Assembly: GCA_035461765.1 (NCBI GenBank)
Contig: DATHUY010000116.1
Coordinates: 1-38,359, forward strand
Direction of reading: 5' to 3'
Source: Longimicrobiales bacterium
Lineage (GTDB): Bacteria; Gemmatimonadota; Gemmatimonadetes; Longimicrobiales; RSA9
Length of the DNA stretch: 38,359 nucleotides
Part shown: in pieces, positions 5,736-25,799 of the stretch
Layout: every line of letters starts with the position of its first letter
Numbering within the stretch: position 1 is the first letter of the stretch
Position numbers and translations under genes: made by a program
Notes under the pieces: generated by a model
What the model saw: the letters and a program-made list of their open reading frames with translations, nothing else
What the model was told of the DNA's origin: nothing
The model's database searches: none

Positions 5736-6350
5736 ATGCCATATCCGTTCAAGCTGCCGGATCTGCCGTACGCGGCGAACGCGCTGGAACCGCATATCGA
5801 CGCGAAGACGATGGAGATCCATCACGACAAGCATCACGCAGCGTACACGAACAAGCTGAATGAAGCGCTCGAGAAGCATCCCGAGCTGCAGAGCAAGTCG
5901 ATAGACGAGCTGCTGCGGGGCATCGACTCCATACCGGAAGACATCCGCACGGCTGTACGGAACAATGGCGGCGGTTTTGCGAACCACGCCATGTTCTGGG
6001 AGATCATGGGTCCGAACGGCGGTGGCGAGCCGACGGGCGCGCTCGCGGATGCGATCACGAAGAAGTTCGGCTCGTTCAGTGACTTCAAGCAGAAGGTGAA
6101 CGCCGCCGGAGCCGGTCAGTTCGGCAGCGGCTGGTCATGGCTCGTCGCGGGCGCCAGCGGCATAGAAGTGTACTCGACGGCGAACCAGGACAGCCCGCTG
6201 ATGAAGGGTGACCGTCCGATCCTCGGCGTGGACGTCTGGGAGCACGCGTACTACCTGAAGTATCAGAACCGCCGTCCGGACTATCTCGAGGCGTGGTGGA
6301 ACACGCTGAACTGGGACGAGATCGGCAAGCGTTACAGCGAAGCGAAGTAA
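5736..6350 (+). CDS. sodA: Superoxide dismutase, Mn/Fe family, Mn-type
   Basis: The 204-residue product is a full-length Fe/Mn superoxide dismutase, which converts superoxide to peroxide and oxygen. Metal ligands are His29 (IHHDKHH), His84 (HAMFW), Asp166 and His170 (DVWEHAYYL). Gly80 and Gln151 (STANQDSPL) occupy the outer-sphere positions that mark manganese enzymes, as opposed to the Gln/Ala pair of iron enzymes. There is no signal peptide, so it is cytoplasmic. A Shine-Dalgarno-like AGGAAAGGGA lies just upstream of the ATG. A Mn-dependent enzyme fits with the Mn-type regulator and importer encoded further along, although the genes are not linked. A strong hairpin follows the stop. Confidence 0.96.
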
Positions 6351-6464: not shown

Positions 6465-6656
6465 TCACGGCTGCACCCCACCCGGCGGGCCCATCCTCAC
6501 CATCTCGGGGCCGATGAAAAAGGCCAGAACGAGGAACCAGAGCACGAGCAGCGCGATGGCGGAGCCGAAGAGCAGCCAGATCCACTGGATGGCGCCGAAC
6601 TTCCGCCAGACGCCGAAGGCGACTGCGAGCAGGAAGAGGAGCAGGAACCAGAGCAT
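6465..6656 (-). CDS. Small two-TM membrane protein
   Basis: The 63-residue product has two clear hydrophobic segments. One is at about residues 1-16 (MLWFLLLFLLAVAFGVW); the other is at about 24-47 (WIWLLFGSAIALLVLWFLVL). They are joined by a short basic turn, WRKFG, and followed by a polar tail. Its ATG lies only 2 nt after the stop of the hybrid kinase gene, so translation is probably coupled to that gene. No family is recognised. Partnership with the soluble kinase or the TupA-like lipoprotein is possible but is inferred from position only. Confidence 0.72.
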   Translation of the reverse strand: MLWFLLLFLLAVAFGVWRKFGAIQWIWLLFGSAIALLVLWFLVLAFFIGPEMVRMGPPGGVQP

Positions 6657-6658
6657 GA

Positions 6659-9652
<2,994 letters not shown>

Positions 9653-9661
9653 GAACGATCG

Positions 9662-10519
9662 TCAGTTCGCGTGCAGACGGTACAGCGGCCGGTCGCTGTT
9701 CGGCGCACGGAAAGCTCCGATCAGACGGCGCGCCGATTCCCCCGTCAGCCAGGCCGCAAGCTCTCGCGCCGCCGGTGTCTGCCCGCCATGCGTCGTGATC
9801 AGCACGCTGTACTCGTTGATCAGATCGTCACCGCCCTCGCGCATGATGATGAGCGACAGGTCGTGACGCAGGACTTCGTAAGTAGCGATGTCGGACAGGA
9901 TGTAGGCGCCGCGCTGCGAGGCCAGCCTGAGCGCGTCCGCCATGCCCGTGCCGGCTTCCATGTAGCCGCTCCATCCGGGAACCACGCCGGCCTCACGCCA
10001 CAGCGCCAGCTCCCTGTGATGCGTGCCGCTGTCATCACCACGCGAGACGAACGGCTGACCTGCGGCGGCAATACGCTGCAGGGCATCGGCCGCCGACTCC
10101 GTCGATGCCGCGCCCGCCGGATCCGTCGGCGGGCCCGCGATGAGGAAGTCGCCCTGCATCAGTGGCTGGCGCGACACGGCCCCGCCCGCCTCGACCAGCG
10201 CGGCCTCGGCCGCCGGCGAGTGCGACAGTACGACATCGACATCGCCGCGTGCGGCCATTGCCAGGATCTCGCCGCTCCCCGCCACGACGACCGACAGCCG
10301 ATGGGACCGGTCGCCCTCATTGTCATATGCCTGCGTCAGGACGTCCAGCACGCCCGAATCCTCCAGAGTATGCGTCGTGCCGAGCACGACCCGCGGCGAA
10401 TCGTCGCCGCCACACGCGAGAACCCCGAGTACCATGCACAACCAGAGCCGCACGGACGCGCGCCGAGCCAGGTGCACTGGCCGTTCAGTATGTGTCCGCA
10501 AGCACACGCACGATGTCAT
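9662..10519 (-). CDS. TupA-like oxyanion (tungstate/molybdate-type) binding lipoprotein
   Basis: The 285-residue product has a lipobox (VLAC, Cys36) and matches the TupA tungstate-binding family in its ordered blocks. These are GTTHTLEDSGVLDVL near the N-terminus, a GDVDVVLSHSPAAE block, GDFLIAGPP, GDDSGTHHRELALW and RGAYILSDIATYE. TupA proteins capture tungstate in the periplasm for an ABC permease and ATPase, yet neither is encoded here; the partners are a PBP4-type peptidase upstream and a hybrid kinase downstream. The ATG at 10519 overlaps the end of the peptidase gene by 35 nt. A GTG at 10477 would avoid the overlap and give a shorter, standard signal peptide; neither start has a good ribosome site. 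Ligand specificity cannot be read from sequence. Confidence 0.82.
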   Translation of the reverse strand: MTSCVCLRTHTERPVHLARRASVRLWLCMVLGVLACGGDDSPRVVLGTTHTLEDSGVLDVLTQAYDNEGDRSHRLSVVVAGSGEILAMAARGDVDVVLSHSPAAEAALVEAGGAVSRQPLMQGDFLIAGPPTDPAGAASTESAADALQRIAAAGQPFVSRGDDSGTHHRELALWREAGVVPGWSGYMEAGTGMADALRLASQRGAYILSDIATYEVLRHDLSLIIMREGGDDLINEYSVLITTHGGQTPAARELAAWLTGESARRLIGAFRAPNSDRPLYRLHAN

Positions 10520-12059
10520 CGAGCACCGGCCGCATGGAGGAGGACGACTGACCGCTGTTGTTCGCCACGATGGCGAAGATCAGCATGCGGCCGCTGTCGG
10601 CCGTGAGGTAGCCGCTCAGAGAATCGACATTGTTGATCGAGCCGGTCTTTCCCGCCACACGGCCCGCCAGGTCCTCCAGCCGAAGCCGAAGGGAGCCCGT
10701 GCGCCCGCCCGATACCGGCAGCGCCGCCCGCGCGGGCGCCATCCGTGGCGTGCGATCCATGTACGCCAGGATCCTGACGAGCGCGGCCGGGGTGAGCAGG
10801 TTGCCCGAAGACAGGCCCGACGCATCACGCAGCCGGAACGCCGTGCTGTCCACACCGACGATGTCGATGAGGAACCGCCGCTCCGCATCGAGGCCGCTGC
10901 TCCAGCTGCCCTCGCCGGCAGTCTCGCGGCCGATCGTCTTGAGCAGCTGCTCCGCGAACCAGTTCTGGCTCGTCTGGAGTACCGGCGCAATCAGCCGCGG
11001 GAGCGGCACTGATCGGTGTGCTGCCAGAACTGTGTGCCGGGCGGCCTCGACGTCGCGCCGGTCCCCCATGATGGGTGACCGGCCGCGGACGACGCGCACG
11101 GTCCGGTCCGCGACGGCAATGCCGGCGCGCTCGAGCGCCTCGCGCAACACGGTGCCGGCGTACCGCGCAGGATCATCCACCGCGAAGTATTCCGTATGCC
11201 GGGATGCATCTGCGGCGATGTTGCCGTATGCGATGATGGTGTCGGTGCCGGCAATGCGGGTGAAGTCGAGCGTCGATCGGGTGCCGGGAGGAGTGGTAGT
11301 CGTGCGATTGACGAACGCGAAGAAGTCCGTCTGCGGCCGCCACGTGATGGTGGCGGGGCCCCCGGCTGAACCGGGTGCGATGGTGAAGTCGATGGCGTTG
11401 TCATTGAACCCGAGCGCGCTCACGGGGGCAGCATACCACCACAGCAGGTCGTATCCCTCCCAGTCCGGTCGGACGTAATCGCCATCCCAGTGGGACTCGT
11501 CCGCTACGACCGCGCCCTCGATGCGGCGGATACCGCGCGCGTGCAGTGAGTCGGCAAGCGCGTCCGGGATATCGAGCATGTCATCGGCGTAACGGCCGGA
11601 GATGGTGGGGTCGCCGGTACCGCGCAGGACGAGGTCACCGCGCAGCACGCCATCGACGATCTCGCCCGTGCTCTCGAGGGTCGTGGTGTAGCGGAAGTCC
11701 GGATCCAGGTAATGCGCGGCGGCCGCGGCAACCACCAGCTTGGTGTTGGATGCGGGAATGAACAGCCGGTCGGCATTGTGGCCGACGAGCGTCTCTCCGG
11801 TCGCGGCGTCACTGACGGCAATGCCCCAGTGCGCACGATCGTGCGGTGCGCGCTCGATGAGCTCCGCGACGCCGCGCGGCAGCGGAGTCTGCTGCGCGGC
11901 GAGTCCGGGCGCGGCTGCCGCCATGAGGGACAGGGCGGCGAAGGCAGAGGCGGCTGCGCGCGCGGCACTGTGGACCCGTGCTGCGGCTGCTGTCGGTGGC
12001 ACGGGGCAGGATCGGGCTGTGGCGTGTGGTGCGGGCCGGGTGGCGCGGACATGATTCAT
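10485..12059 (-). CDS. dacB: D-alanyl-D-alanine carboxypeptidase/endopeptidase (PBP4, peptidase S13)
   Basis: The 524-residue product is a full-length S13 penicillin-binding protein. The active-site serine motif is Ser104-x-x-Lys107 (ASNTK), the second motif is Ser364-x-Asn366 (SQN), and the third is Lys471-Thr-Gly473 (GKTGS). The large insert between the first and second motifs is the class-C PBP domain. A hydrophobic stretch at about 33-55 ending in LAAQQ is a signal peptide with an unusually long N-region of about 30 residues. It should act in the periplasm, trimming pentapeptides or opening peptide cross-links. The gene lies 75 bp downstream of the secretin-N lipoprotein gene on the same strand, so it may belong to the sigma-factor operon. 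Confidence 0.94.
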   Translation of the reverse strand: MNHVRATRPAPHATARSCPVPPTAAAARVHSAARAAASAFAALSLMAAAAPGLAAQQTPLPRGVAELIERAPHDRAHWGIAVSDAATGETLVGHNADRLFIPASNTKLVVAAAAAHYLDPDFRYTTTLESTGEIVDGVLRGDLVLRGTGDPTISGRYADDMLDIPDALADSLHARGIRRIEGAVVADESHWDGDYVRPDWEGYDLLWWYAAPVSALGFNDNAIDFTIAPGSAGGPATITWRPQTDFFAFVNRTTTTPPGTRSTLDFTRIAGTDTIIAYGNIAADASRHTEYFAVDDPARYAGTVLREALERAGIAVADRTVRVVRGRSPIMGDRRDVEAARHTVLAAHRSVPLPRLIAPVLQTSQNWFAEQLLKTIGRETAGEGSWSSGLDAERRFLIDIVGVDSTAFRLRDASGLSSGNLLTPAALVRILAYMDRTPRMAPARAALPVSGGRTGSLRLRLEDLAGRVAGKTGSINNVDSLSGYLTADSGRMLIFAIVANNSGQSSSSMRPVLDDIVRVLADTY

Positions 12060-12134: not shown

Positions 12135-12800
12135 TTACTGGATCTCGGGCCTCACGACCAGAATGAGCGCGCCGCGGTCCTCGAACGGCCGCGCAGTGCC
12201 CAGCACCACCGTCTGGCCCGCGGGGACAATGACGCGGGTCTTCAGGATGTCGCCGTCCGGGCCCCCCAGCCGCACGGAGACATCGACCGAAAACCCGCCC
12301 GACGCCGCTCCGCTGATCCGATCGACGAACACCTCCAGTGTGAGTGGCATGGCGCCCGTGCCGAGCAGTCTCTGGTTCGATACGCTGCCGGGCGTAGTGG
12401 CCACCAGCGCGTCCGCGGCCAGGCGATACCCGCCGAATCGGAACAGATCGCGCAGGACGGCCTCGACGTCGGCGATGGCGGGATCCACATCGGTGAAGCC
12501 GTCCGCCTCAATGAGCTGGAAGCGCAGACGCACATCGGGCGCTGCGACGTCGAGACGCTGCAGCATCTCCTCGATCTGGTCGAGCCGGTCGGCGGAGGCG
12601 GCTACCGTGAGGGCAGGCGGACTGGTGCTGACCCGCACGCTCGCACTCCCCGCCGGCACGTACGGCAGCACGAGCGACTGCGCGCTCTGCGGCGACATAT
12701 GCTCCAGCGCGAACGTGCGTGTGTCCGTGCCCCCCCCATCGCATGCAGCCACTGCCGCGATGCCCAGCATCGCACCCGTCTTCAGCAACCGGTGCCTCAT
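12135..12800 (-). CDS. Lipoprotein with secretin-N (NolW/N1-like) domain
   Basis: The 221-residue product has a lipobox (AVAAC, Cys20). Residues 28-86 look like the N1 domain of secretins: an FALEHMSPQSAQSLVLPYVP strand-helix, then VRVSTSPPALTVAAS, then ADRLDQIEEMLQRLD. The remaining 130 residues are beta-rich with alternating hydrophobics and no secretin pore signature, so this is a free N-domain and not a channel subunit. Its ATG lies one base after the anti-sigma stop. In FecA-type signalling a related small domain (STN) on the outer-membrane receptor contacts the anti-sigma factor, so this lipoprotein may be a sensor or partner for the adjacent anti-sigma protein. That role is inferred from context. 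Confidence 0.75.
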   Translation of the reverse strand: MRHRLLKTGAMLGIAAVAACDGGGTDTRTFALEHMSPQSAQSLVLPYVPAGSASVRVSTSPPALTVAASADRLDQIEEMLQRLDVAAPDVRLRFQLIEADGFTDVDPAIADVEAVLRDLFRFGGYRLAADALVATTPGSVSNQRLLGTGAMPLTLEVFVDRISGAASGGFSVDVSVRLGGPDGDILKTRVIVPAGQTVVLGTARPFEDRGALILVVRPEIQ

Positions 12801-12801
12801 G

Positions 12802-13302
12802 TCATCTCTCCCGTTTCAGGTACCACACGACGGTAATGTTCGGATCCGACGTTTTCATGATTGCGACGTCATGAGCGGTGCTGACGTTTACGACCGGCAC
12901 GTCACCCGCGACCGCGATCTGCTCGGAAACGGGTTCCAGGAGCGGCAGCTCATCACGATCCCGCTGCTGGACGAGGAGGAGCATGAGCACGGCCGCGGCG
13001 GCCAGCGGCGCTGCGCCCAGAATCAGCCTGCGGCGGGTGCGAGCCCGTGAACCCGATGCGGACCACGCGCGCGGCTCGGTTCGCCCGGGCGCATGCGGCG
13101 GAGCCGCGCTGGCGGTGAGGCCCGCGAGTGCGTCCGCCATGCGCTGTTGTGCGGCCAGCACTCGCTCTGCATCCGCCGCGCAGCGAGCGCAGTGGCGCAG
13201 ATGCAGGGCGAGCGGCGATTCACCGACGCCGCGCAGCTCTGACGGGTCCGCCTCGAGAAGCAGCTCGCGGCACCCGGCACACGAGCGTGGCTCACTCTTC
13301 AT
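12802..13302 (-). CDS. Zinc-finger anti-sigma factor, single TM
   Basis: The 166-residue product has an N-terminal zinc-binding motif, His34-x3-Cys38-x2-Cys41, with further cysteines at 8 and 11, as in ZAS anti-sigma domains that hold an ECF sigma factor at the membrane. A transmembrane helix spans about 92-112. A short periplasmic part of about 55 residues ends in DVAIMKTSDPNITVVWYLK. I recall this KTSDPxITVVW-type ending from similar small membrane proteins next to ECF genes. The start overlaps the sigma stop by four bases (ATGA), a sign of coupled expression. The pair with the upstream sigma gene makes the assignment strong. Confidence 0.88.
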   Translation of the reverse strand: MKSEPRSCAGCRELLLEADPSELRGVGESPLALHLRHCARCAADAERVLAAQQRMADALAGLTASAAPPHAPGRTEPRAWSASGSRARTRRRLILGAAPLAAAAVLMLLLVQQRDRDELPLLEPVSEQIAVAGDVPVVNVSTAHDVAIMKTSDPNITVVWYLKRER

Positions 13303-13862
13303 GTGACGTCCTCCACTATGTGTGGATGCATGGCGAGAATGGTCGTTCGTACGTGTCTGCGCGCGCGCAGCAGGTGGACGCGCACGGTCGTCGCATTCAT
13401 GCCGAGCACAGCGGCCGCTTCAGCGGGCGAGTAGCCCTGCAGGTCGACCAGATCGAACACCTCGCGCTGCCTCCCCGTCAATGCTCCGAGACTGTCGCCC
13501 ACCAGGTCCGTCAGTAGCGCGCGGGCCTCCGGCTGATGTGCGACTGCACCTGCTTCGCCGTGCTCGAGCAGCAGCGTGGCCCGCCGCCTCTGCGTGCGCC
13601 GCCAGTCTGCCGCCGTGCGACGCACAATCGCATGAAGCCACGTCGTGAACCGGGCGGCGAACGCAAAGTCGCCCAGTCCCCGCGTTGCGCGGAGCAGCGT
13701 CTCCTGCGTGAGATCCTCGGCTTCGTCGGGTGAGCCCGTTTGCACGAGTGCCCAGCGATAGACACGCGGACGCACGACCCCGAGCAGCCGCGACAGCGCC
13801 GCGGCGTCGCCGCGCTGCGCGCTGCGTACCAGCTCATCGGTGATCTCCTGCTCCAGCGCCAT
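13299..13862 (-). CDS. ECF RNA polymerase sigma factor
   Basis: With the ATG at 13862 the product is 187 residues, the normal size for the family; a longer frame upstream has the composition of a shadow. Region 2 runs from about YRWALVQTGSPDEAEDLTQE to RFTTWLHAIVRRTAADWRR. Region 4 is LTGRQREVFDLVDLQGYSPAEAAAVLG, followed by the recognition helix around NATTVRVHLLRARRHV. There is no region 3 and no C-terminal extension. It should direct polymerase to a small regulon that includes its own operon, and be held off by the overlapping anti-sigma gene. A promoter of ECF type lies just upstream at 13886-13917. Confidence 0.93.
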   Translation of the reverse strand: MALEQEITDELVRSAQRGDAAALSRLLGVVRPRVYRWALVQTGSPDEAEDLTQETLLRATRGLGDFAFAARFTTWLHAIVRRTAADWRRTQRRRATLLLEHGEAGAVAHQPEARALLTDLVGDSLGALTGRQREVFDLVDLQGYSPAEAAAVLGMNATTVRVHLLRARRHVRTTILAMHPHIVEDVT

Positions 13863-14053: not shown

Positions 14054-15082
14054 ATGAACGATCGTATTCTGCGCGCACTGCGTCGCGAGCCGGTGGACCG
14101 CACACCCGTCTGGATGATGCGCCAGGCGGGACGCTCCCTGCCGCGTTACAACGAAACGCGCGCGGAGCGCGGCATGTTCGACCTGTTGAAGGATCCGGTG
14201 GCCGCAGCCGAGATCACGGCCATGCCGCTCGAGTACTACGATGTTGACGCCGCGGTCCTGTACAACGACCTGTCCACGCCCTACTTCGGCGCCGGCTTCG
14301 ACGTGGAGATGCGCAAGGGCGTCGGCCCCGTGGTGCACAATCCGATCATGAAGCCGGAGGACGTCGAGCGTCTCACGCCGTTCGACCCGCGCGTCGAGCT
14401 CGACTACAACCTGGACCAGATCCGTGTGCTCGTCGAGCGGCTCGATGTGCCAGTGCTCGGCTTCGTCGGCGCGCCGTTCACCCTGTCATCCTACCTGATC
14501 ATGGGCCAGCGGTCGCGCGACCTGACCGAGATCAAGACGTTCATGTGGAGCGAGACGGCCGCCTGGAACCGCCTGGCTGGTTTCTGGGCCACGCACATGG
14601 CGGAATTCGCGATCGCGCAGCACGAGGCGGGAGCCGGCGCCGTGCAGATCTTCGACTCGTGGGCCGGCTCACTCGGACCGCAGGACTACGAGGAGTTCGT
14701 GCTGCCGCACATGCGCACTCTGTTCGAACGGCTGGAGAGTGCGAACGTGCCGACGATCAACTTCTACAACGGCAACCCCGCGCTGCTGGCGCTCGTGGCG
14801 CAGGGCGGTGGCGATGCCGTGAGCATCGACTGGCGCATGCCGATCGACGAGGCGTGGAAGATCATCGGCTACGATCGTGCCATCCAGGGCAACCTCGATC
14901 CGTGCGCACTGCTCGCCGGTGAGGAGTTCGCGCTTCGCCGCACGAGGGACATCCTGGACCGCGTCGGTGGACGCCCGGGCCATATCTTCAACCTCGGTCA
15001 CGGCATCCTGCCCGAAACGGACTGGAGAGTCGCCAGGGCCGTGGTCGATTTCGTGCACGAGTATACGGCGCGACCGCGGTGA
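14054..15082 (+). CDS. hemE: Uroporphyrinogen decarboxylase
   Basis: The 342-residue product is a full-length HemE, which removes four carboxyl groups from uroporphyrinogen III to give coproporphyrinogen III in cytoplasmic haem synthesis. The family signature PVWMMRQAGRSLPRY (18-32) supplies Arg23 and Arg27. Asp72 lies in YNDLSTP, the conserved catalytic aspartate region, and the blocks GFVGAPFTLSSYLIMG and FNLGHGILPET are present. The ATG at 14054 has GGAGG at 14046-14050; an open frame extends upstream, but its translation is not family-like. It diverges from the sigma operon. No other haem gene is in view. Confidence 0.97.
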   Translation: MNDRILRALRREPVDRTPVWMMRQAGRSLPRYNETRAERGMFDLLKDPVAAAEITAMPLEYYDVDAAVLYNDLSTPYFGAGFDVEMRKGVGPVVHNPIMKPEDVERLTPFDPRVELDYNLDQIRVLVERLDVPVLGFVGAPFTLSSYLIMGQRSRDLTEIKTFMWSETAAWNRLAGFWATHMAEFAIAQHEAGAGAVQIFDSWAGSLGPQDYEEFVLPHMRTLFERLESANVPTINFYNGNPALLALVAQGGGDAVSIDWRMPIDEAWKIIGYDRAIQGNLDPCALLAGEEFALRRTRDILDRVGGRPGHIFNLGHGILPETDWRVARAVVDFVHEYTARPR

Positions 15083-21024: not shown

Positions 21025-22035
21025 ATGAGAGCCCGGCAAGACTCTGACTCCATGACGGCCCGATTCCGCGCCTGCGTCCCGGCGCGGTCTCTCCATCTCA
21101 TCGCTGCCGCAGCGCTTGCGCTGGCGGGTTGCAGCGGCGACTCCATCCGCCGCGCCGATGACACGCGACTGCGTGTCGTAGCGACGACGGGCATGATCGC
21201 TGATGTCGCCGAACGTGTCGGTGGCCGGCGCGTGCTGATGGAGTCGCTGATGGGTCCGGGAGTGGACCCGCATCTGTACAAGGCGAGTGCGGGCGATGTA
21301 CGGCGTCTGGCGCGTGCGGACCTGGTGCTGTACAACGGGCTGCATCTCGAGGCGGCGATGGGCGAGGTGCTGGAGGAGATGGGGAAGCGGAAGCACACGG
21401 TGGCGGTGACCGACTGGATCGATCGCGGATCGCTGGCTGCGCCGCCGGAGTTTCAGGGCAGCTACGATCCGCACGTGTGGTTCGACGTGCGGCTGTGGAT
21501 GCGTGTGGTACAGCGGATCGAGGCGGCTTATGTGGCGGCGGACTCTGCACACGCGGATGAATATCGCGAGCGGAGTGCGGCGCTGCTGCGCGAAATGGCG
21601 ACGCTGGACGAGTGGGTGCGTGCGCGCGCGGCTGAGGTTCCGCCGGACCGTCGTGTGCTGGTGACCGCGCACGACGCGTTCGGCTATTTCGGCAGGGCAT
21701 ACGGCTTCGAGGTGAAGGGATTGCAGGGCATCAGCACCGCCTCGGAGGCGGGGACGGCGGATGTGCAGCAGCTGGCGGCCGAGATCGCGCGACGCCGGAT
21801 CCCGGCGATCTTCGTGGAGACATCGATCCCGCGGCGCACGATCGAGGCGGTGCAGGCGGCCGTGCGGTCACGCGGCTTCGAGGTAGCGATCGGCGGCGCA
21901 CTGTACTCGGACGCACTAGGCAGCCCGAACACACCTGCGAGCACCTACATGGGGATGGTGCGGAGCAACGTGGAGACGATCGTCGGCGCATTGACGGCGG
22001 GCGGGATCATGGCAGGCGCAATGGAGCGCGAATGA
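21025..22035 (+). CDS. troA: Metal-binding lipoprotein of a Mn/Zn/Fe ABC importer (TroA/ZnuA family)
   Basis: The 336-residue product has a lipobox (LAGC, Cys36) and is a cluster-9 metal-binding protein. The predicted ligands are His83 (GVDPHLY), His150 (SYDPHVWFD), His216 ([10 protein letters not shown]) and Asp296 (YSDALG). The set His-His-His-Asp is that of TroA; PsaA and MntC have Glu at the third position. Transported metal is therefore not fixed by this protein alone. There is no His-rich loop as in ZnuA. The ATG follows the operator by one base, leaving no room for a Shine-Dalgarno site. The message may be leaderless, or the in-frame ATG at 21052 may be used. The stop overlaps the ATPase start by four bases. 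Confidence 0.94.
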
Positions 22036-22829
22036 CGGACGAGACGGCAATCGAAGTGAACGATCTCACGGTCGCGTACCGCGAGCATCCGGTTCTCTGG
22101 GATATCGATCTGACGGTGCCTGCGGGCGTGCTGATGGCGATCGTGGGACCGAACGGGGCGGGCAAGACGACACTGATCAAGGCGATGCTCGGCCTGTTGA
22201 AGCCCGCGGCGGGACAGGTCCTGATTCACGGTCGGCCATATGACGAGCAGCGTCGGCTGATCGCGTACGTCCCGCAGCGCGGCAGTGTGGACTGGGACTT
22301 CCCGACGTCGGTGCTCGATGTCGTGCAGATGGGGCGTTACGGCGCGCTCGGCTGGCTGCGCAGGGTCGGGCGTCGCGAGCGGGACCTGGCGATGACCGCG
22401 CTCGAGAAGGTGGGCATGGAGGATTTTGCGCATCGCCAGATCAGCCAGCTTTCCGGCGGTCAGCAGCAGCGCGTCTTCCTGGCGCGCGCGCTCGTGCAGG
22501 ATGCCCGGGTCTATCTGATGGACGAGCCGTTCCAGGGTGTGGACGCGAAGACCGAGCGGGCGATCGTGACAGTGCTTCAGGCACTGCGTGAAGCGGGCGA
22601 CACCGTCGTGGTAGTACATCACGCGTTGCAGACGGTGCCCGAATACTTCGACTGGGTGACGCTGCTCAACGTGCGCAAGATCGCGGCAGGTCCCGTCGAC
22701 GATGTGTTCACTGCGGAGAATCTGCGCGTGACGTACGGCGGCCGCGTGCCGTTCCACGGCTCCGCATCGCCGCTGCGGGACACGCCGCGCACGGGCGGAA
22801 GCGCGTGGGCTGGCGTGGGCGGAGACTGA
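22032..22829 (+). CDS. troB: Metal ABC transporter ATP-binding protein
   Basis: The 265-residue product has a Walker A motif GPNGAGKT (39-46), Q-loop Gln82, ABC signature LSGGQQQR (140-147), Walker B VYLMDEP (160-166) and H-loop His196. The phrase [19 protein letters not shown] is typical of Mn/Zn/Fe-type importers. It powers transport through the two permeases encoded next. It overlaps troA by ATGA and precedes the first permease by 13 nt, in an operon. The C-terminal 35 residues are variable and Gly/Arg-rich. Confidence 0.95.
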
Positions 22830-22842
22830 GCGCAGCCACCGG

Positions 22843-24012
22843 ATGAATCCGCTCCGCGAGCTGTTCTTCGATTATACGCTGCGCACCGTTGCGCTCGGTG
22901 CGGGCACGCTCGGCATCGTGGCCGGTGCACTCGGCACGTATGCGGTGCTGCGGCGACAGAGCCTGCTGGGTGATGCGATCTCCCACGCCGCTCTTCCCGG
23001 CATCGTGCTCGCCTTCATCCTGACTGGTACGCGGAGCACGCTCGTTCTCGTGCTGGGTGCCGCGCTCGCCGGGTGGCTCGGCACGCTCGTCGTGATGACG
23101 GTGGTGCGGCACAGCCGCTTACCGGAGGACAGTGCGCTGGGGATCGTGCTGTCCGTGTTCTTCGGCGCGGGTCTGGTACTGCTGACGTACGTGCAGAAGC
23201 TGCCTGATGCGTCACAGGCCGGCCTCGACCGCTTTCTTTTCGGCCAGGCCGCAACCATGCTCGAGCGTGATGTCATTGTCATTGCGGCGCTCGGCGCGCT
23301 GGCCCTGCTCGCGGTCTTCGTATTCTGGAAGGAATTCAAGCTCCTCAGCTTCGACCCGGAGTTCGGCGCGTCGCTCGGGATGCCGATGCGGACGATCGAC
23401 ATTCTCCTCACGACGTTTCTCGTCATTGCAATCGTGATCGGGCTGCAGACTGTCGGCGTGGTGCTGATGAGCGCGATGGTGATCGCGCCCGCCGCCGCCG
23501 CGCGCCAGTGGACCAATTCCCTGTCCGTCATGGTGCTTCTTTCGGCGCTTTTCGGCGCCATCGCGGGCGTGACCGGTGCGGTGATCAGCAGCTCGGCCGC
23601 GCACGTCCCGACGGGTCCCACGATCGTCCTCGCGGCAACCACGCTGGTACTCATCTCCATGGCCGTGGCTCCCGAGCGCGGCCTGCTGTGGGCGTCAGTT
23701 CAGCGCAGGAGGCAGCGCCATCAGATCCGCGCGGACGCCGTGCTCGGCGACCTGTACGCACTCGCCGGTCAGCACGAGGGCGAGCACGCGCACGACCTCA
23801 CGGTGCTCGAGGCGATGCGTCTCGGGCGTACCGACGTGCGCCGGGCGCTCGGCGTGCTCGAGGAGCGCGGTCTGGCCCGGCGCGAAGGCGCGAGCGGATG
23901 GACGATCACGCCTGCAGGCCGCGCGGAAGCCGAGCAGGGGACGCGGGACGATCCGGAGGATGGCACGCCGCCGGACCGGGCCGCCCCATCCGGCAGGCGC
24001 GACGGCGTATGA
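22843..24012 (+). CDS. troC: Metal ABC permease with C-terminal winged-helix-like tail (1)
   Basis: The first 290 residues of this 389-residue product are an ABC-3 family permease with about eight transmembrane helices. Conserved blocks are LLGDAISHAALPGI, SFDPEFGASLGMP and GVVLMSAMVIAPAAAARQW. Residues about 299-365 form a soluble domain that resembles the DtxR winged helix: helix VLGDLYALAG, helix-turn-helix with RTDVRRALGVLEERGL, and a wing with GWTITPAGRAEAE. A charged tail follows. Permeases of this family normally end soon after the last helix, so the extension is notable. It may bind DNA, bind a partner or sense metal in the cytoplasm. The gene overlaps the next permease by ATGA. Confidence 0.92.
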   Translation: MNPLRELFFDYTLRTVALGAGTLGIVAGALGTYAVLRRQSLLGDAISHAALPGIVLAFILTGTRSTLVLVLGAALAGWLGTLVVMTVVRHSRLPEDSALGIVLSVFFGAGLVLLTYVQKLPDASQAGLDRFLFGQAATMLERDVIVIAALGALALLAVFVFWKEFKLLSFDPEFGASLGMPMRTIDILLTTFLVIAIVIGLQTVGVVLMSAMVIAPAAAARQWTNSLSVMVLLSALFGAIAGVTGAVISSSAAHVPTGPTIVLAATTLVLISMAVAPERGLLWASVQRRRQRHQIRADAVLGDLYALAGQHEGEHAHDLTVLEAMRLGRTDVRRALGVLEERGLARREGASGWTITPAGRAEAEQGTRDDPEDGTPPDRAAPSGRRDGV

Positions 24013-25118
24013 GCATCGAGCTCGAGATCCAGCTCGTGGCGGTGGTCGTATCCGTCGCGTGCTCACTGGCCGGCGTGTTCCTGGTGCTGCGCCGCATGGC
24101 GCTCATGAGCGACGCGATCAGCCACACGGTGCTGCTCGGCATCGTGCTGGTGTTCTTCATCACGCGTGACATCGCATCACCGTTCCTCGTCCTCGGTGCT
24201 GCGGCGATGGGAGTCGCCACGGTGGGGCTGGTCGAGCTGTTGCGACGCACGCGGCTGGTGCGTGAGGATGCATCGATCGGACTGGTGTTCCCCGCCCTGT
24301 TCAGCATTGCCGTCATTCTGATCACGCGCTACGCGGGCGCCGTGCATCTCGATACCGACGCCGTTCTGCTCGGCGAAATTGCGTTCGCGCCGTTCCGGCG
24401 GCTGGAGGTGGGCGGTCGGGACCTGGGGCCGCGCTCCCTGTGGGTGATGGGCGGCGTGCTGGTATTGAACATTCTCTTCATAACGGCGCTCTACAAGGAG
24501 CTGAAGCTCTCGACGTTCGATCCCGGCCTGGCCGCAGCGCTCGGCTTCGCACCCGGCGTGCTCCATTACGCGTTCATGACGCTGGTATCGATTACGGCAG
24601 TCGGTGCGTTCGACGCGGTCGGTTCAATCCTCGTCGTTGCACTGATGATCACGCCACCCGCTACTGCGTACCTCCTCTCGGACAGTCTGCCGCGGGTGCT
24701 GATCCTGAGCGCGGTCATCGCCGCGGCCGCGGCTCTGGGCGGCTTCTGGACCGCATGGCTCGTCGATGCCTCCATCGCCGGGTGCATGGCGGCCGTGGCG
24801 GGACTGCTGTTCATGCTCGCGTTCCTGCTGGCACCCGAGCGCGGCGTCGTTGCGGTCGCGCGCAGGCGTGAGCGGCAGCGCTGGGAGTTCGCGCGCCTGA
24901 TGCTCGCGATCCACCTGCTGCACCACGAGGGCGCACCCGAGGCCGCCGACGAGAGCCGGGAGACACATCTCGGCGAGCACCTGCGCTGGAAGCCGGCGTT
25001 CGCGCGGCGCGTGGTCGACGAGGCGGAGGAGGATGATCTGCTGCTGCGGCTGCCGGACGGTCGGCTCGAGCTGACGGACGCGGGCAGGGACTCCGCACGG
25101 AAGGCGATGCTGGTCTGA
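24009..25118 (+). CDS. troD: Metal ABC permease with C-terminal winged-helix-like tail (2)
   Basis: With the ATG at 24009, overlapping the preceding stop, the product is 369 residues. Residues 1-285 are a second ABC-3 permease (MSDAISHTVLLGIVL, STFDPGLAAALGF, GSILVVALMITPPATAYLL), so the membrane part is probably a heterodimer as in TroCD. Residues about 289-369 form a soluble extension. Its helix (FARLMLAIHLLHHEG) and HLRWKPAFARRVVDEAEEDDLLL followed by LPDGRLELTDAGRDSA resemble a winged-helix fold, similar in place and type to that of the first permease though weakly alike in sequence. The stop lies 9 nt from the convergent stop of the regulator gene. Confidence 0.92.
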   Translation: MSIELEIQLVAVVVSVACSLAGVFLVLRRMALMSDAISHTVLLGIVLVFFITRDIASPFLVLGAAAMGVATVGLVELLRRTRLVREDASIGLVFPALFSIAVILITRYAGAVHLDTDAVLLGEIAFAPFRRLEVGGRDLGPRSLWVMGGVLVLNILFITALYKELKLSTFDPGLAAALGFAPGVLHYAFMTLVSITAVGAFDAVGSILVVALMITPPATAYLLSDSLPRVLILSAVIAAAAALGGFWTAWLVDASIAGCMAAVAGLLFMLAFLLAPERGVVAVARRRERQRWEFARLMLAIHLLHHEGAPEAADESRETHLGEHLRWKPAFARRVVDEAEEDDLLLRLPDGRLELTDAGRDSARKAMLV

Positions 25119-25127
25119 GCAGCCGCT

Positions 25128-25799
25128 TCAGCGCTGCGGCGTGCCTTCCTTCGGCTCGACCTTGATCTGCTTCGCCAGGTCACGCCCGACGATCTGTTCC
25201 GTACCGTTGATACGGACGCGGAGCGGGCCGTTGAACGGCGCGACCTCGAGAACTTCGAGCTCGGCGCCCGGTCGCAGCTGGAGCTGGGCGAGGTAGCGAA
25301 GCGCGGCCGCGTCCTCATCGGGCACGCGCCGCAGTGTTGCGCCATCACCCGCACACAGCTCGGCCAGCGTGGGGAACGGGTGCTCGTGGAACTCGCCTTC
25401 AGCGGCGGGTATGGGGGCGCCGTGCGGATCGGCGTCCGGCTGGCCGAGCACACCCGCCATGCGATCGATCAGCTCGTCGGTTACGACGTGCTCCAGTCGT
25501 TCCGCCTCCTCGTGAACACGATCCCACGTGTAGCCGAGTACATCGACGAGGAACAGCTCCAGAATGCGATGGCGGCGAATGGTACGGATCGCGTTGTTCG
25601 CGCCGTCCTCGGTGAGCCGCGCGCCGTAATAGCGGGTATGCTCGACGAGGCCGGCCTCCGCGAGTCGCTTGAGCATGCCCGTTACGGAGCCGGCGGCAAT
25701 GCCCAGGCGTTCCGCGATGGCCGACGTGCTCACGGGCGCGCCCGCTTCGGAGAGCTGATAAATCGCCTTGAGATAGTCCTCGACTGCGGGCGTCGTCAT
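25128..25799 (-). CDS. mntR: DtxR/MntR-family metal-dependent repressor, Mn-type ligands
   Basis: With ATG 25799 the product is 223 residues, with an N-terminal winged helix (MTTPAVEDYLKAIYQL to GARLTEDG), a dimerisation/metal domain, and a C-terminal FeoA/SH3-like domain as in DtxR and IdeR. Ligand positions are Asp8, Glu100, Glu103 and His104 for the main site, and His77, Glu81 and His96 for the ancillary site. Asp8 and Glu100 stand where DtxR has Met10 and Cys102, the change known to favour manganese over iron. Residue 11 is Lys where Bacillus MntR has Glu11. It probably binds the box at 21008-21023 when loaded with metal. It is convergent with the permease gene and diverges from the channel gene. 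Confidence 0.93.
   Translation of the reverse strand: MTTPAVEDYLKAIYQLSEAGAPVSTSAIAERLGIAAGSVTGMLKRLAEAGLVEHTRYYGARLTEDGANNAIRTIRRHRILELFLVDVLGYTWDRVHEEAERLEHVVTDELIDRMAGVLGQPDADPHGAPIPAAEGEFHEHPFPTLAELCAGDGATLRRVPDEDAAALRYLAQLQLRPGAELEVLEVAPFNGPLRVRINGTEQIVGRDLAKQIKVEPKEGTPQR

What the first reader, a model, noticed from the sequence alone, without database searches (positions are those of the whole stretch)
6465..10519. Orphan TupA-like lipoprotein coupled to a soluble hybrid kinase and a two-TM peptide
The oxyanion-binding lipoprotein has no permease or ATPase beside it. It is followed, 9 nt later, by a kinase with receivers at both ends, and, 2 nt after that, by a 63-residue two-TM protein. 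Binding proteins of ABC type can serve as ligand sensors for kinases. The kinase here has no membrane part, so the small protein could be the bridge across the membrane. This could be a tungstate/molybdate-type sensing relay.
Basis: inference. Interest (0 to 1): 0.6.

Follow-up and report, generated by a model that had tools for sequence, protein, structure and literature searches.

The report
Spare tungstate-type binding protein beside kinase
A bacterium of the Gemmatimonadetes group carries a spare copy of a tungstate/molybdate-binding surface protein next to a signalling kinase, but relatives keep the binding protein without the kinase, so the proposed metal-sensing relay is unproven and the arrangement looks mostly like an ordinary gene neighbourhood.

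Summary
The three genes exist as described (minus strand): TupA-like lipoprotein 10519/10477-9662, hybrid kinase 9652-6659, two-TM protein 6656-6465, with gaps of 9 and 2 nt. The lipoprotein has the TupA fold (best match 3lr1, Z 27.4) and keeps pocket residues H59, R118, T124 and D170; the TTTS motif reads T-T-H-T. It is a second copy: contig C22 of the same genome holds a complete tupABC with molybdenum-cofactor genes. Two sister genera keep the lipoprotein in the same hemE-SOD slot (one with that run) without kinase or small protein. Kinase and small protein occur together only in the window's genus, whose second genome is broken where the lipoprotein would lie. In this phylum tupA is often apart from tupBC (58 of 100 loci; 20 of 20 tupB loci checked lack tupA), so lacking a permease neighbour is ordinary. 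The small protein has almost no periplasmic part. A relay like GlnH-GlnX-PknG is not excluded, but nothing specific supports it. Side finding: one clade of unlinked tupA genes has a membrane-anchored receiver protein directly upstream (7 of 11 loci).

The parts
9662..10519 (-). TupA-like oxyanion-binding lipoprotein (285 aa from ATG 10519; likelier start GTG 10477, 271 aa); lipobox-like VLAC, C36
   Evidence: Pfam PBP_like_2 1.1e-25; NCBIfam TupA only hit, 116.9 bits; PDB 3muq/3lr1/5my5; model vs 3lr1 Z 27.4, rmsd 2.1, 227 residues
10367..10378 (-). T48-T49-H50-T51, the place of the TTTS tungstate motif (T9-T10-T11-S12)
   Evidence: alignment to 5my5/3lr1; PMC5517513 (passages); comparison over 114 copies
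6659..9652 (-). soluble hybrid histidine kinase, 997 aa: receiver, several PAS, HisKA, HATPase_c, receiver
   Evidence: Pfam; hydropathy
7094..7456 (-). HATPase_c domain of the kinase
6686..7024 (-). C-terminal receiver domain of the kinase (residues 877-989)
6465..6656 (-). 63-aa two-TM protein, no family; conserved in the sister species next to the kinase
   Evidence: no Pfam or NCBIfam hit; L021 7000-7197, dN/dS 0.14; strong hits in 2 of 394 genomes
10485..12059 (-). dacB-type D-Ala-D-Ala carboxypeptidase (S13), directly upstream, same strand
   Evidence: Pfam 9.7e-103; counterpart beside the lipoprotein in G006
12135..12800 (-). secretin-N-like lipoprotein of the same gene run
   Evidence: Pfam Secretin_N, below cut-off; counterpart in G006
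12802..13302 (-). 166-aa protein, anti-sigma-like by place and by an HxxxCxxC pattern (recalled)
   Evidence: no Pfam hit; counterpart in G006
13299..13862 (-). ECF sigma factor, first gene of the run
   Evidence: Pfam Sigma70_r2 / r4_2; counterparts in G006 and, cut by the contig end, G001
14054..15082 (+). hemE, one border of the conserved slot (name from sequence by eye)
5736..6350 (+). Fe/Mn superoxide dismutase, other border of the slot
   Evidence: Pfam

Best explanation
The lipoprotein is a TupA paralog, a periplasmic binder of a tungstate/molybdate-type oxyanion. It is an older member of an envelope gene run (ECF sigma, anti-sigma-like, secretin-N-like lipoprotein, dacB, TupA) that lies between hemE and SOD in this family. 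Most likely it binds oxyanion and hands it to the TupBC transporter encoded elsewhere, as a second binding protein, or buffers it in the periplasm. In the window's genus a soluble hybrid kinase and a small membrane protein were added behind it and are probably co-transcribed. The kinase most likely takes its input in the cytosol, through its N-terminal receiver and PAS domains. Shown: gene order, domains, fold, conserved pocket residues, a second complete tupABC, absence of kinase and small protein beside the lipoprotein in two sister genera. Inferred: ligand, use in trans, co-transcription, kinase input.
For: Complete tupABC on C22. Counterparts in G005 and G006 in the hemE-SOD slot, without kinase or small protein; in G006 the sigma-to-dacB run is kept. 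Small protein: strong hits only in G000 and G001 (2 of 394; 2 of 99). tupA apart from tupBC is common: of 100 loci from outside the family 58 have no tupB beside tupA, 37 do, 5 end too soon; 43 of 45 genomes with such copies hold a tupB somewhere; 20 of 20 tupB loci fetched show no tupA. A second TupA-like protein with the same T-H-T change sits directly before tupBC in Burkholderiales (L084, L085). Pocket residues kept.
Against: The window's genome already has its own tupA beside tupBC, so a helper is not needed there. G006 has the lipoprotein but no tupB was found (85% complete). Regulator genes recur near tupA-like genes in this phylum, which fits signalling too. No experiment exists on any of these proteins.
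Confidence: 0.5

Rival explanations
1. Sensing relay: the oxyanion-loaded lipoprotein touches the small two-TM protein, which passes the signal to the soluble hybrid kinase, as GlnH, GlnX and PknG do in Actinobacteria.
For: Tight spacing of the three genes. Kinase and small protein stay together in the sister species and are under purifying selection (dN/dS 0.12-0.22 and 0.14). Precedent for lipoprotein + membrane protein + soluble kinase in one operon (PMC6069109 abstract; PMC9769921 passages). In 10 of 11 characterised SBP-kinase couples the genes are neighbours (PMC11113362 introduction). Receiver or ModE-like regulator genes recur near tupA-like genes.
Against: No kinase beside the lipoprotein in G005 and G006. 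The small protein offers at most about 15 residues outside the membrane. Two P. aeruginosa neighbouring SBP-kinase sets showed no interaction (PMC11113362 abstract). Kinases are abundant in this genome (75 HATPase_c matches). The N-terminal receiver suggests input from another kinase.
Confidence: 0.2
2. Envelope role: the lipoprotein acts with the ECF sigma / secretin-N-like / dacB genes, for example as a periplasmic sink or cue for oxyanion stress, with no transport and no kinase contact.
For: The conserved neighbours across genera are dacB, the secretin-N-like gene and the sigma factor, not the kinase (G000 and G006). T11 of the TTTS motif is T in 45 of 45 readable tupB-linked copies of the phylum, but H, Y or F in 17 of 67 others.
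Against: In G005 the lipoprotein is kept without the sigma-dacB run. I know of no mechanism that joins a TupA-type protein to this sigma group.
Confidence: 0.2
3. Mere neighbours: kinase and small protein were inserted behind the lipoprotein by chance and only share a transcript.
For: Genus-limited kinase-small pair; same slot without it in two genera; many hybrid kinases in the family.
Against: 9-nt and 2-nt gaps suggest coordinated expression; the kinase-small pair is kept in G001.
Confidence: 0.1

Closest known systems
TupA of TupABC (Desulfovibrio alaskensis, PDB 5my5; Geobacter sulfurreducens, 3lr1)
   Same: Fold, 37% identity to 3lr1 over 227 residues, pocket residues H59, R118, T124, D170 and T10 kept
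   Different: TTTS reads T-T-H-T; no tupBC beside it; a second TupA with tupBC exists in the genome
GlnH-GlnX-PknG (Actinobacteria; PMC6069109, PMC9769921)
   Same: Lipoprotein SBP, membrane protein and soluble kinase in one gene run
   Different: Ser/Thr kinase there, histidine kinase here; GlnX has 501 residues with two periplasmic domains, here 63 residues with almost none; conserved set there, genus-limited here
CuaD-CuaS-CuaR (Ruminiclostridium cellulolyticum; PMC10384115)
   Same: A second SBP beside two-component genes while the transporter has its own SBP
   Different: CuaS binds CuaD through extracellular domains; the kinase here has none
Burkholderiales tandem TupA plus TupA-like T-H-T protein with tupBC (L084, L085)
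   Same: Second TupA-like copy with the same His substitution
   Different: There directly followed by tupBC; the tree places it apart, so the change looks independent

Membership tests
TupA (tungstate-binding protein) | TupA fold and best family model | tested here: met
   Z 27.4 to 3lr1; NCBIfam TupA only hit
TupA (tungstate-binding protein) | NCBIfam equivalog cut-off (400 bits) | tested here: inconclusive
   116.9 bits; but the C22 TupA with tupBC scores 180.2 and the Burkholderiales TTTS copy 217.7, so the cut-off does not discriminate here
TupA (tungstate-binding protein) | TTTS motif | tested here: not met
   T-T-H-T
TupA (tungstate-binding protein) | R118, T124, D170, H59 | tested here: met
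   R160, T166, D210, H100
TupA (tungstate-binding protein) | binds tungstate with high affinity | not testable with these tools
   needs ITC
TupABC transporter | tupB and tupC beside tupA | tested here: not met
   none in the window; complete set on C22
GlnH-GlnX-PknG type relay | lipoprotein SBP and soluble kinase in one gene run | tested here: met
GlnH-GlnX-PknG type relay | membrane protein with sizeable periplasmic docking domains | tested here: not met
   63 aa, two TM, tail of about 15 aa
GlnH-GlnX-PknG type relay | three genes conserved together in relatives | tested here: not met
   lipoprotein without the others in G005, G006; G001 unreadable at the contig gap
SBP-dependent sensor kinase (LuxPQ, TorTS, CuaDS type; first two names recalled) | kinase with extracytoplasmic domain that binds the SBP | tested here: not met
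   no clear TM helix in the kinase
SBP-dependent sensor kinase (LuxPQ, TorTS, CuaDS type; first two names recalled) | SBP alters kinase activity | not testable with these tools
   needs an assay

The most novel reading that the evidence does not exclude
A three-part oxyanion relay of a new build: a TupA-type lipoprotein with a T-H-T pocket talks through a 63-residue two-TM protein, whose short Pro-containing outer tail would be the contact, to a soluble phosphorelay kinase. A related design would use membrane-anchored receivers with Pro-rich tails beside other unlinked TupA proteins of the phylum.
Probability: 0.1. Interest if true: 0.7.

Novelty: new variant of a known kind. Interest (0 to 1): 0.3.

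Why it matters
If the relay were real, it would be a TupA-type sensor (my searches, listed no report of one) and a histidine-kinase counterpart of GlnH-GlnX-PknG with a minimal bridge. As it stands, the useful results are that tupA and tupBC are commonly split in this phylum, that TupA paralogs repeatedly change T11 of the TTTS motif to His, Tyr or Phe, and that regulator genes recur beside unlinked tupA genes. These give testable groups for ligand-binding work.

Tried and rejected
Rfam on the whole window: no match, so no Moco-type riboswitch at gathering thresholds. Promoter and terminator scan: uninformative, no promoter-like site. PADLOC: only weak hits to the kinase. Single-protein scan of genome contigs with the lipoprotein: nothing confirmed. 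The second scan, with the three-row alignment, gave 5 loci. Codon-model gene calling failed on some loci of other composition, so those were read as six-frame ORFs. Literature: searches listed nothing on a TupA protein acting on a histidine kinase. I read the listings, and opened six papers: PMC5517513, PMC9769921 and PMC6829864 (passages), PMC11113362 (abstract and introduction), PMC10384115 and PMC6069109 (abstracts). The structure model (mean pLDDT 72, 5 alignment rows) was used for the fold only.

Considered and dropped: that the H50 pocket marks one orphan family. The tree puts T-[HYF]-T copies in three separate places, and the G005 copy is not firmly joined to the window copy. Also dropped: that the G001 kinase is dead. 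Its fragment lacks about 169 codons (HisKA to HATPase_c), but it lies at a contig end, so a misassembly is as likely.

Full report
What is there. On the minus strand lie a TupA-like lipoprotein (10519-9662), a 997-residue hybrid kinase (9652-6659) and a 63-residue two-TM protein (6656-6465), with gaps of 9 and 2 nt. The lipoprotein matches PBP_like_2, has TupA as its only NCBIfam hit, and aligns to the solved TupA-type proteins 3muq, 3lr1 and 5my5. Its predicted model matches 3lr1 with Z 27.4, rmsd 2.1 over 227 residues. The kinase has two receiver stretches, PAS domains, HisKA and HATPase_c, and no hydrophobic stretch of clear TM strength. The small protein has no family, two hydrophobic stretches and about 15 residues after the second. 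An R-K pair in its loop suggests, by the positive-inside rule (recalled), that both ends face outward. The phylum is Gemmatimonadetes: the contig of relative G006 and the named contig L083 have the same length and the same match.

The pocket. PMC5517513 (passages) names T9-T10-T11-S12, H59, R118, T124 and D170 as the site, with R118 tested by mutants. In the lipoprotein these are T48-T49-H50-T51, H100, R160, T166 and D210. So T11 became His and S12 became Thr. In the phylum T11 is T in 45 of 45 readable tupB-linked copies and H, Y or F in 17 of 67 readable others; H59, R118 and T124 are kept in all that could be read (114 copies, the Burkholderiales rows left out). In a quick tree of 105 of 120 copies the T-[HYF]-T change appears in at least three separate places. 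The window copy groups with the G006 copy (SH-aLRT 96); the G005 copy is unresolved. Binding of a tungstate/molybdate-type oxyanion is therefore likely, but the exact ligand is open.

A second copy. The same genome has tupA-tupB-tupC on contig C22, followed by fdhD-, mobA- and moeA-type genes. Its TupA has the S-T-T-S form.

The neighbourhood. Upstream on the same strand lie dacB (10485-12059), a secretin-N-like lipoprotein (12135-12800), an anti-sigma-like protein (12802-13302) and an ECF sigma factor (13299-13862). The run is bordered by hemE and SOD. In G006 the slot reads hemE, sigma, anti-sigma-like, secretin-N-like, dacB, lipoprotein, SOD; in G005 it reads SOD, lipoprotein, hemE. Neither has the kinase or the small protein there. 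G001, the only other genome of the genus held, has SOD, small protein and kinase on one contig that ends inside the kinase, and hemE plus the start of the sigma factor on another contig that ends there. The part where the lipoprotein would lie is missing, so the three-gene order is seen in one genome only. The family search covered 12 genomes; in the other 8 the SOD gene has different neighbours and no TupA-like gene beside it.

Are the kinase and small protein a real unit? The small protein gave strong hits only in G000 and G001 (2 of 99; 2 of 394, where the other 18 genomes listed score 23 bits or less). Between G000 and G001 dN/dS is 0.14 for the small protein and 0.12-0.22 for the kinase parts, against 0.04 for SOD and 0.08 for hemE. 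So the pair is a kept, genus-level unit. The G001 kinase fragment lacks about 169 codons from HisKA to HATPase_c, which may be real or a contig-end error.

Is the orphan state special? No. Of 100 tupA-like loci from outside the family, 58 have no tupB beside them, 37 do, and 5 end too soon. Of 45 genomes with unlinked copies, 43 hold a tupB somewhere (G006 and G359 do not, both under 90% complete). In 20 of 20 tupB loci fetched, no tupA was found within the fetched 4.6-8.7 kb; tupC was found in 18. In Burkholderiales a second TupA-like protein with the T-H-T change is directly followed by tupBC (L084, L085). Use in trans is thus the plainest reading for an unlinked copy, though the window's genome also has a linked one.

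Regulators near tupA. Among 117 loci with a tupA-like gene, a histidine kinase was detected within 6.5 kb in five (window, L032, L128, L159, L179). Only in the window is it directly behind and on the same strand. L032, of the same family, has a membrane-type kinase and an NtrC-type regulator upstream of a complete tupABC. ModE-like HTH genes are near many copies of family f4, and in L124 a phosphate-selective-porin-type gene lies directly upstream of tupA. In one clade 7 of 11 loci have a receiver protein with a C-terminal TM helix and a Pro-rich tail directly upstream. These facts keep a signalling reading open for the group, but none ties this lipoprotein to this kinase. Chance adjacency is not negligible: the genome has 75 HATPase_c matches.

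Compared with what is known. GlnH-GlnX-PknG is the closest precedent for lipoprotein, membrane protein and soluble kinase (PMC6069109 abstract; PMC9769921 passages). GlnX has 501 residues and two periplasmic domains of about 155 residues; the small protein here has almost none. CuaD is a second SBP serving a two-component system (PMC10384115 abstract), but it binds the kinase's extracellular domains. PMC11113362 reports that 10 of 11 characterised couples are neighbours (introduction) and that further neighbouring sets in P. aeruginosa did not interact (abstract).

Verdict. The lipoprotein is a TupA paralog with a changed pocket in an older envelope gene run; the kinase and small protein are a genus-level addition behind it. 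The relay is possible (about 0.2) but unsupported by conservation or by the anatomy of the small protein.

Noticed in passing
L167, L169, L172, L175, L176, L177, L189 (upstream of tupA, gaps 78-199 nt): A receiver-domain protein with one C-terminal TM helix and a short Pro-rich tail (PIPVP-like) lies directly upstream of an unlinked tupA-like gene in 7 of 11 loci of one clade: a membrane-anchored receiver beside a binding protein.
   Followed up: partly
L118, L125, L128, L129, L133, L134, L138, L139, L141, L143, L144, L149, L178, L187, L193 and others: ModE-like HTH genes near unlinked tupA-like genes; in L124 a phosphate-selective-porin-type gene (Pfam Porin_O_P) is directly upstream of tupA.
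   Followed up: partly
L084 9169-12079, L085 5762-8672: Burkholderiales loci with two tandem TupA-type proteins, one TTTS and one T-H-T, before tupBC.
   Followed up: partly
L032 3080-5814: Membrane-type histidine kinase and NtrC-type regulator directly upstream of a complete tupABC in a genome of the same family.
   Followed up: partly
L021 7200-8186: Kinase fragment of the sister species lacks about 169 codons in frame, HisKA to HATPase_c, at the contig end: deletion or misassembly.
   Followed up: partly
window 21052-25799: ZnuA-type binding protein, ABC ATPase, two permease genes and a small regulator-like gene: a metal-uptake locus, not Tup.
   Followed up: no
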